A program made the translations under genes and the position numbers. The notes beneath the pieces are model-generated. The model searched no databases and was not told the DNA's origin. It saw only the letters and a list, made by a program, of their open reading frames with translations. Below are positions 8,145 to 41,524 of a stretch of 41,524 nt of DNA, piece after piece. Numbering within the stretch: position 1 is the stretch's first letter; each line of letters opens with the position of its first letter. Origin of the DNA: Hyphomicrobiales bacterium. Its GTDB lineage: Bacteria; Pseudomonadota; Alphaproteobacteria; Rhizobiales; Beijerinckiaceae. The stretch is from positions 1 through 41,524 of the forward strand of contig JAIXSR010000024.1 in the NCBI GenBank assembly GCA_027484605.1, given 5' to 3'.

Positions 8145-8170
8145 CTTCCGTAACCGATGATGGGCGACGC

Positions 8171-8344
8171 TTACTTGGTCTTGGTCTTCAGCGTGTTGCC
8201 GATGTTGGTGAAGGCCGTCTTCAGGTCACCACCGAAGGTGCCGAGGGCCGTGATGATCGCCGCAGCCATGAGGGCGGCAATGAGGCTGTATTCGATGGCC
8301 GTGGCACCGGATTCATCGGCGGCGAAACGCTTGAAAATCGACAT
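8171..8344 (-). CDS. flp: Flp-type IVb pilin, copy 1
   Basis: A 57-aa prepilin of the Flp/Fap family, the major subunit of Tad adhesion pili. The leader MSIFKRFAADESG ends at the G/A cleavage site recognised by a CpaA/TadV prepilin peptidase. The mature protein begins ATAIEYSLIAALMAAAIITAL, with the family's Glu5-Tyr6 pair and a single hydrophobic helix. It differs from the other two copies in the leader (KRFAAD versus NRFVKD) and near the end (KTKTK versus KTNTK). Start ATG 8342-8344 behind GGAG. It has its own promoter, structured leader and terminator. No secretion ATPase or platform gene is in the window. Confidence 0.95.
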   Translation of the reverse strand: MSIFKRFAADESGATAIEYSLIAALMAAAIITALGTFGGDLKTAFTNIGNTLKTKTK

Positions 8345-8372
8345 TGTCTTGCTCCAGTTCTTGTTTTGACGC

Positions 8373-8392
8373 CCCAGCTGTTTCACAGCGGG
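8373..8392 (-). promoter_or_regulatory. Leader hairpin of flp1
   Basis: In the 5' leader the arms CCC-GCTGT and ACAGC-(T)-GGG pair around a GAA loop with one bulged base. The same position ahead of flp2 carries a hairpin of the same shape with two compensatory pair changes (see 8826-8845). It lies 28 nt before the start codon. A second conserved small hairpin (TCTTCC...GGAAGA) lies just upstream. Role unknown; mRNA stability or translational control is an inference. Confidence 0.6.
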
Positions 8393-8416
8393 TTTCTTCC
8401 GCTCCAAGGAAGATGC

Positions 8417-8445
8417 AGTATAACTAGCAGTAGAGTTCTCTGAAA
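8417..8445 (-). promoter_or_regulatory. Candidate flp1 promoter
   Basis: TTTCAG (8440-8445), 17 nt, TATACT (8417-8422) on the minus strand. The block from here to the start codon is conserved ahead of flp2. Predicted leader about 65 nt. Confidence 0.45.
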
Positions 8446-8573
8446 TTCTTAACGGGATCATTGAAAGCGATCCTCGCACCGGGCTTCGGGCAACAGGGTT
8501 TCCCGTTTCTAAAAAAATTGATGTGCCGGGTTTCAGTTAATCTGGCGTCTGAAGCCAGGGATAGCCAAAACGG

Positions 8574-8600
8574 AAAAAGGCAGGGCTGAGCCCTGCCTTT
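8574..8600 (-). terminator. Terminator of flp2
   Basis: Perfect 11-bp stem AAAGGCAGGGC / GCCCTGCCTTT with a 3-nt loop (8587-8589) and five T on the minus strand. The stem is identical to the flp3 terminator at 9026-9053, which shows that gene and terminator were duplicated together. Confidence 0.92.
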
Positions 8601-8625
8601 CCGAACCGGTCTGAACCGGGATGAC

Positions 8626-8799
8626 TTACTTGGTGTTGGTCTTCAGCGTGTTGCCGATGTTGGTGAAGGCGGTCTTCAGGTCGCCGCCGAACGTGCCGAG
8701 GGCGGTGATGATCGCAGCGGCCATCAGGGCGGCGATGAGGCTGTACTCGATCGCGGTGGCGCCGGACTCATCCTTCACGAAACGATTGAAAATCGACAT
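8626..8799 (-). CDS. flp: Flp-type IVb pilin, copy 2
   Basis: A 57-aa Flp prepilin read directly from the sequence; it is short enough to be missed by length filters. Start ATG 8797-8799 (ATGTCGATTTTCAATCG) with GGAG upstream, stop TAA 8626-8628. The leader MSIFNRFVKDESG precedes ATAIEYSLIAAL, so the processing site and Glu5 are intact. The protein is identical to copy 3, while its promoter and leader match copy 1. It is therefore a mosaic, probably produced by duplication and gene conversion. Expected role is a pilus subunit of the Tad system. Confidence 0.93.
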   Translation of the reverse strand: MSIFNRFVKDESGATAIEYSLIAALMAAAIITALGTFGGDLKTAFTNIGNTLKTNTK

Positions 8800-8825
8800 T
8801 GTCTTGCTCCATTTTTGTTTGACGC

Positions 8826-8845
8826 CCCTTCTGCCTCGCAGAGGG
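8826..8845 (-). promoter_or_regulatory. Leader hairpin of flp2, covarying with flp1
   Basis: Arms CCC-TCTGC and GCAGA-(A)-GGG around a GAG loop, 26 nt before the start codon. Compared with flp1, the first inner pair changes from G-C to T-A and the fifth from T-A to C-G; both changes keep pairing. The bulge position and the CCC/GGG base are the same. Confidence 0.6.
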
Positions 8846-8869
8846 TGTCTTCCGCTCCAAGGAAGATGC

Positions 8870-8898
8870 GGTATTTCTAACCGTCAAATTCTCCGAAA
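8870..8898 (-). promoter_or_regulatory. Candidate flp2 promoter
   Basis: TTTCGG (8893-8898), 17 nt, AATACC (8870-8875) on the minus strand, aligned base for base with the flp1 promoter candidate. The -10 is poor, so confidence is low. Confidence 0.35.
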
Positions 8899-8967
8899 TT
8901 CTTAATTGCTTCGAAGAAAGACGTCCCGATGGCTGTCTCTTGCCAAAAGGGTTTCCCCTTTCTGAAG

Positions 8968-9001
8968 AAAAAGCTGGATTCTCGCATGAAGAGAATCCAG
9001 C
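8968..9001 (-). terminator. Second terminator downstream of flp3
   Basis: Perfect 11-bp stem GCTGGATTCTC / GAGAATCCAGC (8973-8983 and 8991-9001) with a 7-nt loop, followed on the minus strand by a T-run (8972-8968). It lies behind the 9026-9053 terminator, giving tandem stops after flp3. Confidence 0.82.
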
Positions 9002-9025
9002 CTTGTGCAGGCCGTACATGAAAAC

Positions 9026-9053
9026 GAAAAAGGCAGGGCCAAGCCCTGCCTTT
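9026..9053 (-). terminator. First terminator of flp3
   Basis: Perfect 11-bp stem AAAGGCAGGGC / GCCCTGCCTTT, 3-nt loop and a T-run on the minus strand, 25 nt after the flp3 stop. Stem identical to the flp2 terminator. Confidence 0.92.
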
Positions 9054-9077
9054 CGAAACCGGTTGAACCGGAAGACC

Positions 9078-9251
9078 TTACTTGGTGTTGGTCTTCAGCG
9101 TGTTGCCGATGTTGGTGAAGGCGGTCTTCAGGTCGCCGCCGAAAGTGCCGAGGGCGGTGATGATCGCGGCGGCCATCAGGGCGGCGATGAGGCTGTACTC
9201 GATCGCGGTGGCGCCGGACTCGTCCTTCACGAAACGGTTGAAAATCGACAT
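9078..9251 (-). CDS. flp: Flp-type IVb pilin, copy 3
   Basis: A 57-aa Flp prepilin with the same sequence as copy 2 (leader MSIFNRFVKDESG, mature start ATAIEYSLIAAL). The start is ATG 9249-9251 behind AAGGAG at a good distance; the longer frame to 9329 lacks a ribosome site and would bury the prepilin leader. Its upstream region is unrelated to that of copies 1 and 2, so it is probably expressed differently. It ends at two successive intrinsic terminators. Confidence 0.95.
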   Translation of the reverse strand: MSIFNRFVKDESGATAIEYSLIAALMAAAIITALGTFGGDLKTAFTNIGNTLKTNTK

Positions 9252-9775
9252 GGTGTGCTCCTTACTCTGTTGCTCCAGGTCTCTGATCGCCTGCTCTTTC
9301 CGAACCAGTGCGTCTGAACCGAGGCCCAATCTAGCGATCGATTCTTTCGTCTGGGTTAACTCGTCTCTAGATTTCGATCTGTAATCGTGACCGCCTCTGA
9401 TATAATTAAAAATCTTAAAATCAAGCGAATACTCAATACCGACTCCCCAATAGGTTGGTTAATTCGAGATAAAAGAATTTCAATACTTAAGGTTTGAGGC
9501 GGAACAATTTTCTTCATTTGGCAATTTGTGCGGCTTATCGGGATGAATAGGCTTGATTCTATTCTCCGGGGTCGGTCCGGTTCTTCGCAGCGGCCCGGGC
9601 GCGCTGCCCTCAGCCGTGATGCAATGCGGGGTTCCGGGCCGAAAGAATTCTGTCGAATTTGATCGAAGGCCTGTCCGGCATGCCGGTGACGGGCAGGAAT
9701 TTACCGAACATTCACCCTGTTGCGGCAGGATGACCAGACGATCGGCGGGAGGTTTGTCCGCGCCGACCTTGCGGG
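9252..9775. other. Divergent intergenic region between flp3 and the CpaC-N-like gene
   Basis: 524 bp without a credible gene. The part from about 9360 to 9520 is AT-rich and probably holds the flp3 promoter and regulator sites. It includes TTAACC at 9354-9359 on the complementary strand, preceded 7 nt away by CTAG, which is a degenerate CtrA-like box. The part from 9560 to 9775 is GC-rich and precedes the plus-strand gene. The open frames here have atypical composition, no ribosome sites and no recognisable domain. Confidence 0.55.
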
Positions 9776-38697: not shown

Positions 38698-39600
38698 TCA
38701 TGCCTCGCCCAGTTCGATCAGCACGATTTCCGGTGCGACGCCCACCCGCACCGGCGCGATGCTGCAACCGAGCCCGCCGGAGACGAGGAGGTGCCGGCCC
38801 TCCTCGACGATATGGCCATAGGCGAAGCGGTCACCGAAGCGGGACGGCACCACAGGCCGCCAGCCGAAGAGGTTGACCTGGCCGCCATGGGTATGGCCTG
38901 ACAGCGTGAGGCTGACGCGGTCCGGCACTTCCGGGAAGATATCCGGCTCATGCGCCATCAGCAGGACCGGGTCGTCATTCGTGCAGGCGGCTAGGGTGGC
39001 GGGCAGGTCTGCGAGGCTCTGCCAGCGGTTCCGGCGCGCCGTCGGCAAGGCGAGCTGGTCGCCGAGGCCGGCCAGCCAGAAGCCCTTTTCGCCCTGGCGG
39101 ATATGCACCGCCTCGTTATGGAGCACGCGGATGCCCGCTTCCTCGAGCGCGCGGCGCGTATAGGGCATGCCGGTGCGGCTGCGCTGGACTTCCCGGTCAT
39201 CCCACCAATCGTGATTGCCGAGCACGGCATGCACGCCAAGCGGCGCGGAGAGCCCGCCGAGCGCCGGCGCCCAGGCACTGGCCGGGACGGTGTCGAGCCG
39301 GAACTTGCGCATGCCGGTCACGAAATCCCCGAGGAGGAGGACCAGATCGGGCCGGAGCGCATTGGCATCGGCGACGATGCTGCGCAGGCGCTCCGGGCTC
39401 ATCCAGGGTTCGACGACATGGATATCCGAGAGGGCGACGATCCTGAGTGCTTGGCCCTGCGGCCATTGGCGCGGCGCCAGCCGGTAGCGGGCGATGCGCG
39501 GCCGCTGCAGCGGGCCGTAGCCGAAGGCATAGGCCGCGCCGGCTGTCAGGCTGACCAGGCTCGCGCCGAGGAATTTCAGGAGCGTTCGACGGGAGAGCAT
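38698..39600 (-). CDS. Tat-exported metallophosphoesterase (YkuE-like)
   Basis: A 300-aa calcineurin-type phosphoesterase. The N-terminus MLSRRTLLKFLGASLVSLTAG is a twin-arginine signal or anchor, placing it in or on the periplasmic side. Metal-binding motifs are all present: SDIH (58-61), GDFVTG (91-96), GNHDWW (128-133), a His in LLMAHEPDIF and SGHTHGGQ. Substrate unknown; YkuE-type members are thought to act on phospholipid-like substrates. The start is ATG 39598-39600, chosen because the Tat motif begins there; the longer frame overlaps ruvB. Confidence 0.88.
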   Translation of the reverse strand: MLSRRTLLKFLGASLVSLTAGAAYAFGYGPLQRPRIARYRLAPRQWPQGQALRIVALSDIHVVEPWMSPERLRSIVADANALRPDLVLLLGDFVTGMRKFRLDTVPASAWAPALGGLSAPLGVHAVLGNHDWWDDREVQRSRTGMPYTRRALEEAGIRVLHNEAVHIRQGEKGFWLAGLGDQLALPTARRNRWQSLADLPATLAACTNDDPVLLMAHEPDIFPEVPDRVSLTLSGHTHGGQVNLFGWRPVVPSRFGDRFAYGHIVEEGRHLLVSGGLGCSIAPVRVGVAPEIVLIELGEA

Positions 39601-39643
39601 GGACGAGGACTTCTGGAGGCAGGGCCGGCCCTTTGGCCGGTTT

Positions 39644-40681
39644 TCACTCTTCTTCCCCGGCAAAGAGGTTGAATTGTGACGCTTCCCGCGCCGGCGGGTT
39701 CATCCCGAGATGGCGGAACGCGGCATCGGTCAGCAGGCGGCCACGCGGGGTGCGCTGCAGGAAGCCCTGCTGGAGGAGATAGGGCTCGATGATGTCCTCG
39801 ATGGCATCGCGCGGCTCGGACAGCGCGGCCGCCATGGTCTCGATGCCGACCGGTCCGCCGGAGAACTTCTCGGCGATGGTGGTGAGGTAGCGCCGGTCCA
39901 TCAGGTCAAGCCCGATGGAATCGACATCCAGCATGGTCAGCGCCTTGTCGGCGATGGCGCGCGTCACCCGGTCGGCGCCCTCGACGATGGCAACATCGCG
40001 CACGCGGCGGAGCAGGCGGCCGGCAATGCGCGGCGTGCCGCGCGCGCGGCGGGCGATCTCGTTCGCGCCATCCTCGCTCATGCCGATGCCGAGCACGCGC
40101 GCGCCGCGCGTCACGATCAGTTCCAGTTCCTGCACCGTGTAGAAATTCAGCCGGATCGGGATGCCGAAGCGATCGCGCAGGGGCGTGGTCAGCAGGCCGG
40201 CGCGGGTGGTGGCGCCGACAAGGGTGAATTTCGGCAGGTCGATCTTCACCGAGCGCGCGGCCGGGCCCTCGCCGATGATCAGGTCGAGCTGGTAATCCTC
40301 CATGGCGGGGTAGAGGATTTCCTCGACCGCCGGGTTGAGGCGGTGGATCTCGTCGATGAAGAGCACATCGCGCTCGTCGAGATTGGTCAGCTGCGCGGCG
40401 AGATCGCCGGCCTTGGCGATGACGGGGCCGGAAGTCGAGCGGAAATTCACGCCGAGTTCACGCGCGACGATCTGCGCCAGCGTCGTCTTGCCAAGGCCCG
40501 GCGGGCCGACGAAGAGCACATGGTCCAAAGCCTCGCCGCGCGCCTTGGCCGACTGGATGAAGACCTTGAGGTTTTCCTGCGCCTGCTGCTGGCCGATGAA
40601 TTCACCGAGGGCGAGCGGGCGGATCGACTGATCCACATCATCGCCGCGTTTTTCGGGGTTGAGGAGGCCGGGGCGGGTCAT
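39644..40681 (-). CDS. ruvB: Holliday junction branch-migration ATPase RuvB
   Basis: A 345-aa hexameric AAA+ motor that with RuvA drives branch migration of Holliday junctions. Walker A GPPGLGKT is at 59-66, Walker B reads [10 protein letters not shown], sensor 1 lies in GATTRAGLL, and the arginine finger is in PLRDRFG. The C-terminal winged helix is complete ([23 protein letters not shown]). Start ATG 40679-40681, overlapping the orf160 stop by 4 nt (ATGA). Its first 68 bp are repeated at 41224-41291. ruvA and ruvC are not upstream as expected; instead a foreign orf and a GNAT gene precede it. Confidence 0.98.
40614..40681 (-). repeat. Direct repeat, downstream copy (5' end of intact ruvB)
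   Basis: 68 bp covering the start codon and codons 1-23 of ruvB. It matches 41224-41291 with a single difference (position 40649 versus 41259), a synonymous AAA/AAG change in codon 11. Identity stops exactly at the A of the ATG. Confidence 0.95.
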
Positions 40682-41160
40682 GGGGTGGGCTCTTCTGAGT
40701 CGATGTCATCATGCCAAAACGCAATGCTCCAGTGTATTAGATATGCGTTCAGGCAGGCAACTGGAGTAATGAGCAAAATTATGCTGCCAAAAATATTCAA
40801 ATGTTCATTAGAATTAGTAATAGGTGTGTCATAATGAAATTTGATATAAATTATAAAACAATATACAATAGTAAATATCCAAGTTATAACAAACGAAAAC
40901 GCCCATTTTCCTCGGAAAAATTTGTTCAGTATTGAGAAAAAAATTCCAGATAACAAGCCGGGAATGCTAAAAAAGTATAAACTATAGATCAAAATTTGAC
41001 CTATAGCGTTAGCGGAAGGCGTTATTCTCCAGTTGTCAAGATAAGAAATGATGATGGTTCCAAAAACCGTGCATAGGATAGGTGTAAAAACTGCTGACAA
41101 AATTCCACCTGTGAAGGCGCAGCTCCCGTAACTGAAGCGATTGAGTTTCCAAGCACTCAC
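40678..41160 (-). CDS. orf160: unrecognised four-helix membrane protein, low GC, foreign
   Basis: A 160-aa protein I cannot assign to any family. It has four hydrophobic segments (about 12-40, 53-79, 84-107 and 119-148) with short loops, a positively charged N-terminus and an acidic tail ([10 protein letters not shown]). The GC content of 40681-41160 is about 37% by hand count (as low as 20% in 40801-40860), against well over 60% around it, and AT-ending codons dominate. It starts at GTG 41158-41160, 8 nt after AAGGAA, overlapping the preceding stop (GTGA). Its own stop overlaps the ruvB ATG. It is complete, and the intact frame in such AT-rich DNA suggests it is expressed. Immunity, phage exclusion or transport roles are all unproven. 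Confidence 0.75.
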
Positions 41161-41223
41161 TTCGCCAGTTCCTTGAGCCTTTGCCGAGTGAGCATGTGCA
41201 ATCCGGCAAGCTCGTAGATCGCC
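40682..41223. mobile_element. 542-bp foreign insert flanked by a 68-bp ruvB duplication
   Basis: The segment between the two ruvB 5' copies. It carries orf160 and 20 codons of an unrelated upstream frame. There are no transposase, terminal inverted repeats or IS signatures. The arrangement matches what has been described for restriction-modification genes as insertion with long target duplication. A single crossover with incoming DNA carrying orf160-ruvB would give the same structure. Confidence 0.6.
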
Positions 41224-41291
41224 AGCGGGCGGATCGACTGATCCACATCATCGCCGCGCTTTTCGGGGTTGAGGAGGCCGGGGCGGGTCAT
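41157..41291 (-). pseudogene. Truncated ruvB 5' end fused to foreign sequence (44 codons)
   Basis: ATG 41289-41291 begins the ruvB N-terminus through residue 24 (ending SIRPLA). The frame then continues for 20 unrelated residues, [20 protein letters not shown], to TGA 41157-41159. The start overlaps the GNAT stop (ATGA) and the stop overlaps the orf160 start (GTGA). It cannot encode a working RuvB. It may now act as a short coupling reading frame that carries ribosomes from the GNAT gene to orf160. Confidence 0.85.
41224..41291 (-). repeat. Direct repeat, upstream copy (ruvB remnant)
   Basis: 68 bp matching 40614-40681 with one mismatch. It is preceded directly by the GNAT gene, so this is probably the ancestral position of the ruvB start codon. 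Confidence 0.95.
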
Positions 41292-41524
41292 AGCGTCTTC
41301 TCGAGGTCGATCAGGTCGCGGATGGGCAGGCCATCCGCATCCACCAGCGGGATGGAGGGCTTTTCCCGGCGGATCTCCGCCACGGCATCGCGATGCAGCG
41401 CGGCGAGGTGGTAACCGCGTTTCTGGAAGAAGCGCAAGGCGCCGAGATTGTTGTTGGTCGTGGCGAGGATCATGCGCGCGGCGCCGGCCCGCCGGGCCTC
41501 GCGCTCGGCGGCATCCATCAGGGC
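41288..41524 (-). CDS. GNAT-family N-acetyltransferase, C-terminal part (cut by window edge)
   Basis: The last 78 residues of a GCN5-related acetyltransferase. The helix ALMDAAEREARRAGAARMILATT and the motif NNNLGALRFFQKRGYHLAALHRDAV are the typical acetyl-CoA fold and the N-x-x-A-x-x-F-Y/F region. The N-terminus lies beyond base 41524. Its TGA (41288-41290) overlaps the ATG of the ruvB remnant, so before the insertion it was probably translationally coupled to ruvB. Substrate unknown. Confidence 0.88.
   Translation of the reverse strand, partial: ALMDAAEREARRAGAARMILATTNNNLGALRFFQKRGYHLAALHRDAVAEIRREKPSIPLVDADGLPIRDLIDLEKTL

What the first reader, a model, noticed from the sequence alone, without database searches (positions are those of the whole stretch)
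40614..41291. Foreign insert at the ruvB start codon with a 68-bp target duplication that rebuilds ruvB
The first 68 bp of ruvB occur twice, 610 bp apart, with one synonymous difference. Between them lies a 542-bp segment of about 37% GC. The repeat ends exactly at the ruvB ATG. The intact ruvB lies downstream and the remnant lies next to the GNAT gene. This fits insertion with long target duplication, known for restriction-modification genes but not, to my knowledge, for a small membrane-protein gene at ruvB. It would let a gene enter an essential operon without breaking it.
Basis: partly seen in the sequence, partly recalled or inferred. Interest (0 to 1): 0.78.

Follow-up and report, generated by a model that had tools for sequence, protein, structure and literature searches.

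The report
Gene stacked between ruvA and ruvB
A small foreign membrane-protein gene was added in front of a DNA-repair gene by recombination that copied the repair gene's first 68 bases and left a scar joining pieces of two repair genes; similar scars in related bacteria suggest that genes are repeatedly added at this spot without breaking the operon.

Summary
The first 68 bp of ruvB occur twice, 610 bp apart, with one synonymous difference and a 542-bp, 39% GC segment between them. Of 16 same-genus relatives (Rhabdaerophilum), three carry this GNAT joined directly to ruvB, one (G013) carries the same kind of insert, and 12 have other slot contents. It therefore looks like an allele ruvA'-orf160-ruvB added behind the resident ruvA-GNAT-ruvB, leaving a 'ruvB head | ruvA tail' scar. 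The two orf160 alleles are near-saturated at synonymous sites (dS 2.3; flanking genes 0.28-0.34), so the two inserts were probably gained separately. Comparable scars separate stacked genes in six Bradyrhizobium genomes. The ruvA-ruvB interval is 90 bp or longer in 112 of 157 loci. Best mechanism: additive recombination of slot alleles, with an illegitimate joint at the scar. The exact route, the donor and the function of orf160 are unknown.

The parts
39644..40681 (-). ruvB, intact, 345 aa; its ATG overlaps the stop of orf160 (ATGA)
40614..40681 (-). first 68 nt of intact ruvB (repeat copy 2)
40678..41160 (-). orf160: 160-aa AT-rich (37% GC) protein, about 4 hydrophobic segments by a simple hydropathy count; GTG start overlaps the stop of the chimeric ORF (GTGA)
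41157..41193 (-). degenerate ruvA 3' tail including its stop codon (37 nt, 78% identical to the resident ruvA end)
41157..41291 (-). 44-codon chimeric ORF (ruvB head fused in frame to ruvA tail); scar and possible translational relay
41224..41291 (-). copy of the first 68 nt of ruvB (repeat copy 1, remnant), overlapping the GNAT stop (ATGA)
41288..41524 (-). 3' part of the resident GNAT acetyltransferase gene; the rest and ruvA lie on contig C6 (L037)
41406..41524 (.). 119-bp contig-end overlap with contig C6

Best explanation
The ruvA-ruvB interval is a cargo slot. A donor allele of the form ruvA'-orf160-ruvB entered a cell whose slot was ruvA-GNAT-ruvB. It was added rather than swapped: one side joined by homology inside the start of ruvB, the other by an illegitimate joint between the resident ruvB (about nt 68) and the donor ruvA 3' end. 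The result is ruvA-GNAT-[ruvB head | ruvA tail]-orf160-ruvB. ruvB stays whole and every junction keeps an NTGA stop/start overlap, so translational coupling could continue through the 44-codon chimera. Recombination between the two ruvB heads could remove orf160 exactly. Shown: duplication, ruvA tail, overlaps, uninterrupted relatives, comparable scars in another genus. Inferred: donor, route of DNA entry, joining chemistry, coupling, excision.
For: (1) Empty sites: G002, G012, G015 have GNAT joined directly to ruvB. (2) ruvA tail: of 88 TGA-ending 39-mers in the window locus, the true ruvA end scores 30.5/39 mean identity to 157 ruvA tails, the insert tail 26.0, the next 18.6; in G013 30.4, 24.5, next 17.9 of 114. 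Own ruvA tail slid over the slot: 28/36 there, next 20/36. (3) Both ruvB heads in the window share C24; the other four genomes compared have T, so the duplicated head looks resident. (4) Separate gains: orf160 dS 2.28 against ruvB 0.28, ruvA 0.34, GNAT 0.31; the copy matches ruvB to nt 68 in the window and nt 93 in G013; carriers are not sisters in a ruvC+A+B tree (88/98 for G000+G002). (5) Recurrence: ruvB-head copies in 4 of 112 slots of >=90 bp at E<=1e-3 (all <=1e-5), 0 of 112 in reversed slots. (6) Two ruvB heads 464-1282 bp apart in 6 of 265 Bradyrhizobium-genus genomes; the backwards pattern gave 0; G604 reads ruvA-memb-[ruvB'|ruvA']-deaminase-like-[ruvB''|ruvA'']-memb-ruvB. (7) In B. 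valentinum (L101) the inner ruvA tail ends ELSK*(TAG)ACTG, like the ruvA of L108, while the resident ruvA ends ELAK*(TGA).
Against: No simple ruvA-orf160-ruvB donor allele was found: relatives only in G000 and G013, 2 of 397 family genomes. The empty scans of genome contigs, viral contigs and plasmids are weak negatives, because one search also missed the G013 homologue, whose contig is in that collection (L072). Joint chemistry is poorly supported: of 10 scars given to the splitting script, 5 were placed sensibly, with 0 nt (G013), 1 nt (G649, G651), 2 nt (G604) and 4 nt (G605) of microhomology; for the window and 4 others the split was misplaced. No chance expectation was computed. The LSK/LAK point is not a clean marker: among 13 other slots with the deaminase-like gene, 6 have LSK and 7 LAK ruvA ends, and the first inner tail of G419 ends LAK. 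Window and G013 ruvA tails share GGCAAAGGCT, which could mean one event. Five other Rhabdaerophilum slots with two genes (G001, G005, G007, G009, G015) show no scar at E<=1e-3. Several Bradyrhizobium scars may descend from one event.
Confidence: 0.65

Rival explanations
1. Tandem duplication first: ruvA 3'-GNAT-ruvB 5' duplicated within one genome by a joint between ruvB and ruvA, then one GNAT copy was replaced by orf160 through ordinary allelic recombination.
For: Gives the same final structure; three of 16 relatives (G001, G007, G015) do hold two GNAT genes in the slot; allele swapping is suggested by the many cargo types.
Against: Needs two steps; the two GNATs of a slot differ strongly (in G015 36% and 80% identity to the G013 GNAT) and those slots show no scar at E<=1e-3; in B. 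valentinum the inner ruvA tail is of another type than the resident one.
Confidence: 0.25
2. Circle integration: a circle of ruvA tail-orf160-ruvB head integrated by one crossover in the ruvB head; the direct repeats are the crossover homology and the insert can leave the same way.
For: Predicts direct repeats of exactly the ruvB head on both sides; both heads look resident; an ectopic 139-bp piece in G626, the end of the deaminase-like gene plus the ruvB head, stops at ruvB nt 64, close to the sensibly placed Bradyrhizobium scar splits at nt 60-65.
Against: No free circle or carrier was seen or searched for; a linear route explains the same data.
Confidence: 0.15
3. One old insertion in the common ancestor of G000 and G013, lost in G002, G012 and G015 by recombination between the repeats, with gene conversion of the ruvB heads and very fast evolution or later replacement of orf160.
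For: Both inserts follow GNAT and carry related orf160 genes and a similar ruvA tail (43 of 63 nt); the repeats make loss easy.
Against: orf160 dS 2.28 against about 0.3 in flanks; different copy ends (nt 68 and 93); carriers not sisters, with moderate support.
Confidence: 0.2
4. Insertion by a transposon-like or site-specific element with a long target duplication.
For: Direct repeats flank the insert.
Against: No transposase-like ORF recognised in the insert; duplication lengths differ (68 and 93 nt); the insert carries a ruvA tail.
Confidence: 0.03
5. Assembly artefact at the repeat near the contig end.
For: The contig ends about 230 bp from the repeat.
Against: G013 shows the same architecture inside an 897-kb contig; five Bradyrhizobium contigs of 7.1-9.5 Mb show comparable scars.
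Confidence: 0.03

Closest known systems
Insertion with long target duplication (Nobusato et al. 2000, H. pylori; known here only through passages of PMC1643837 and PMC4978471)
   Same: A gene flanked by long direct repeats, with an uninterrupted relative
   Different: Described there mainly for restriction-modification genes; here the insert carries the 3' end of the upstream gene of the same operon, which points to stacking of alleles
Homology-facilitated illegitimate recombination (start of the abstract of PMC3240628 in a search listing; passages of PMC6819513; original papers not held)
   Same: One homologous end and one illegitimate joint, described in PMC6819513 as mostly at 3-12 nt of GC-rich identity
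   Different: Here the donor module seems to carry operon sequence at both ends and the product duplicates the ruvB head; donor not identified and joints mostly below 3 nt or unresolved
T6SS effector-immunity arrays of Vibrio cholerae (PMC5361080, passages)
   Same: Successive horizontally gained modules stack at a conserved anchor; that paper proposes homology-facilitated illegitimate recombination as a possible route
   Different: Displaced immunity genes are kept there; here unrelated small genes sit inside a DNA-repair operon with ruvB|ruvA scars
Small variable segments flanked by direct repeats (PMC2884548, passages)
   Same: That paper reports some 10% of variable segments flanked by direct repeats and explains variability by deletion between them
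   Different: No ruv locus is mentioned there; here the repeat is the head of the next gene, joined to the tail of the previous one
Integron gene-cassette arrays (recalled)
   Same: Small genes added at a fixed place, separated by short repeated sequences
   Different: No integrase recognised and no attC sought; the separators are pieces of the flanking coding genes

Membership tests
Insertion with long target duplication | Uninterrupted site in relatives | tested here: met
   G002, G012, G015
Insertion with long target duplication | Long direct repeat of target DNA on both sides | tested here: met
   68 bp, 1 mismatch
Insertion with long target duplication | Inserted DNA unrelated to the target operon (my reading of the family) | tested here: not met
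   Insert carries a ruvA 3' tail of the same operon
Homology-facilitated illegitimate recombination | Homologous anchor on one side | tested here: inconclusive
   Both ruvB heads look resident; donor sequence unknown
Homology-facilitated illegitimate recombination | Joint at 3-12 nt GC-rich identity on the other side | tested here: inconclusive
   Of 10 scars, 5 placed: 0, 1, 1, 2 and 4 nt; 5 misplaced, the window's among them
Transposon or insertion sequence | Transposase or terminal inverted repeats | tested here: not met
   No Pfam family reached its cut-off for orf160 or the chimera; of six inverted-repeat pairs in 39500-41524 none has arms at the insert borders, though three (I1, I2, I5) have arms outside it on both sides
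Integron cassette array | Integron integrase and attC sites | not tested
   No dedicated search was made

The most novel reading that the evidence does not exclude
The ruvA-ruvB slot of Hyphomicrobiales works as a cassette array without a recombinase: units of ruvA tail-cargo-ruvB head move between strains, possibly as circles, join at preferred breakpoints, are added behind existing cargo with translational coupling kept, and can leave exactly through the duplicated ruvB head.
Probability: 0.2. Interest if true: 0.8.

Novelty: new variant of a known kind. Interest (0 to 1): 0.6.

Why it matters
It offers a readable record of how a gene enters a conserved operon without breaking it: the scars show cargo arriving with pieces of both flanking genes, so stacking of slot alleles can be told from simple insertion. 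If general, it gives a route for turnover of small accessory genes in core operons that needs no mobile element, and it can be tested by looking for 'next-gene head | previous-gene tail' scars elsewhere. In nine searches of an open-access library I saw no title or abstract start about cargo turnover or such scars between ruvA and ruvB; four of them named ruv genes together with insertion or gene-order terms, the others were about mechanisms. Only listings were examined, so this is a weak negative.

Tried and rejected
Orf160 function: best Pfam E 0.045, below cut-off; PADLOC none; AlphaFold model weak (mean pLDDT 58, pTM 0.46), so no fold search was made; profile comparison with eight other groups of slot membrane proteins gave at most 1.1% probability. 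An SOS link was not supported: GTTCN7GTTC within 300 bp upstream of ruvC in 0 of 88 loci. That only ruvA-ruvB varies is too strong: gaps of >=150 bp occur in 28 of 74 ruvC-ruvA and 48 of 74 ruvA-ruvB intervals of the same loci. One search listed ruvA tails against a stretch off by one base; one search repeats it correctly. In one search, 24 of 181 loci gave no slot (23 without a ruvB hit, 1 without a ruvA hit) and were dropped. The survey sets come from two collections and were screened only for identical sequence (0 identical). Many weak matches were judged chance; ruvA-tail hits at E<=1e-3 are 5 real against 2 reversed, so a ruvA-tail hit alone is weak evidence and the case for it rests. In one search five of ten scars were split at implausible places, and for the window the script put the joint at nt 95 (80 of 95 matching) instead of nt 68. 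The Bradyrhizobium pattern sees only heads within 3 mismatches, so 6 of 265 is a lower bound; the place list was cut, and six of the seven two-hit genomes were searched again.

Full report
What is there. On the minus strand the order is ruvC-ruvA-GNAT-[44-codon chimera]-orf160-ruvB. ruvC, ruvA and the GNAT start lie on contig C6, which overlaps the window's end by 119 identical bases. The first 68 nt of ruvB are present twice with one synonymous change. Scanning 484,131 bp of the same genome for direct repeats of this kind gave only this pair and a set of tandem Flp-pilin paralogues.

Empty sites and a second insert. A DNA search of 41 genomes put the window in a genus with 16 other held species. 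Two contigs of matching length are named Rhabdaerophilum sp. SD176 and R. calidifontis, hence the genus name; the window's own record is not named. Of the 16 relatives, G002, G012 and G015 have this GNAT gene joined directly to ruvB, G013 has the insert, and 12 have other slot contents (in G016 ruvA was not found on the same contig piece). G013 has GNAT, a ruvB head matching to nt 93 with one mismatch, and a homologue of orf160 at about 42% identity before ruvB. orf160 relatives were found in 2 of 17 genus genomes at a significant score (a third match in G013 is marginal, E 0.007) and 2 of 397 family genomes, counting the window's own.

The insert carries a ruvA tail. After the ruvB head the reading frame continues into ...[11 protein letters not shown] in the window and ...SALVWQRLKEQAK* in G013, like the RuvA C-terminus ...LIRQGLKELAK*. 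BLAST against the resident ruvA gives E 3.6e-5 and 3.7e-5. Scoring every TGA-ending 39-mer in each locus against 157 ruvA ends ranks the true ruvA end first and the insert tail second (window 30.5, 26.0, next 18.6; G013 30.4, 24.5, next 17.9). The orf160 start overlaps this stop (GTGA; ATGA in G013), as a first cargo ORF overlaps the real ruvA stop in 51 of 89 slots of 300 bp or more. The insert thus has the anatomy of a slot allele: ruvA end, cargo, ruvB.

Separate gains. Synonymous divergence of orf160 between the two genomes is near saturation (dS 2.28; four-fold sites 8 of 22 identical), while ruvB, ruvA and GNAT give 0.28, 0.34 and 0.31. Both ruvB heads of the window have C24 where G013 (both copies), G002, G012 and G015 have T. 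The copies end at different places, and the carriers are not sisters in a ruvC+A+B tree, with moderate support. A shared 10-nt stretch in the two ruvA tails and possible gene conversion keep a single old event open.

The slot and its scars elsewhere. In 157 loci the ruvA-ruvB interval is 26 bp or less in 42 and 90 bp or more in 112. Cargo includes GNATs, deaminase-like genes and several families of small membrane proteins (labels other than GNAT are recalled). ruvB-head copies occur in 4 of 112 slots, none in reversed slots: the window, G013, Bradyrhizobium valentinum (L101) and B. guangdongense (L108, weakest, E 1e-5). A pattern scan of 265 Bradyrhizobium-genus genomes found 7 with two heads, 6 of them 464-1282 bp apart. 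The five fetched for inspection (G419, G604, G605, G649, G651) show stacked genes separated by ruvB head | ruvA tail scars; L101 shows the same and L108 a ruvB head only. One scar in G604 is an in-frame 33-codon chimera, MNTPTRIVTPERRSDDVGDTAL-LVRLGLKELAK, the same kind as the window's 44-codon ORF. These scars fall into at least two joint types and are not all independent. Five Rhabdaerophilum slots with two genes show no scar, so stacking does not always leave one, or it erodes.

How it most likely works. The simplest account is addition of a donor slot allele: homologous joining in the ruvB start and an illegitimate joint between resident ruvB and donor ruvA end. Evidence on the joint itself is thin: of ten scars examined, five were placed sensibly, with 0, 1, 1, 2 and 4 nt of microhomology, and no chance expectation was computed. 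Homology-facilitated illegitimate recombination as described in PMC6819513 (passage) would fit, but so would a circle closing at the same joint or tandem duplication followed by replacement, the last helped by the two-GNAT slots of G001, G007 and G015. The Vibrio T6SS arrays (PMC5361080, passages) are the closest described parallel in process.

What remains unknown. The donor, the route of entry, whether the chimera is translated, and what orf160 does. The slot gene of G003 gave only a sub-threshold HEPN match, so a defence role for AT-rich cargo is speculation.

Noticed in passing
window 8170-9261: Three tandem Flp-type pilin genes (label recalled) give the only other direct-repeat pair of this size in the 484 kb scanned; ordinary paralogues.
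   Followed up: yes
L311 (G626 C1, about 7756921), 2324-2462: A 139-bp exact copy of the end of the deaminase-like gene plus the first 64 nt of ruvB lies 6.7 Mb along the contig from the ruv locus, ending near the sensibly placed Bradyrhizobium scar splits.
   Followed up: partly
L074, L075 and other Rhabdaerophilum loci, ruvC-ruvA gap: An ORF of about 126 aa, perhaps exported (read only in L075), fills a 370-400 bp gap between ruvC and ruvA in several species; the gap is 3 bp in the window genome, G013 and G002.
   Followed up: partly
L076 4444-5010 (G003): AT-rich (36% GC) 189-aa gene alone in the ruvA-ruvB slot, with a sub-threshold HEPN match (E 0.002).
   Followed up: partly
L080, L082: ruvA-tail copies beside REP-like repeats in the slot, a duplication without a recognised new gene.
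   Followed up: no
window 41524: The contig ends inside the GNAT gene about 230 bp from the repeat, with a 119-bp exact overlap to contig C6.
   Followed up: yes
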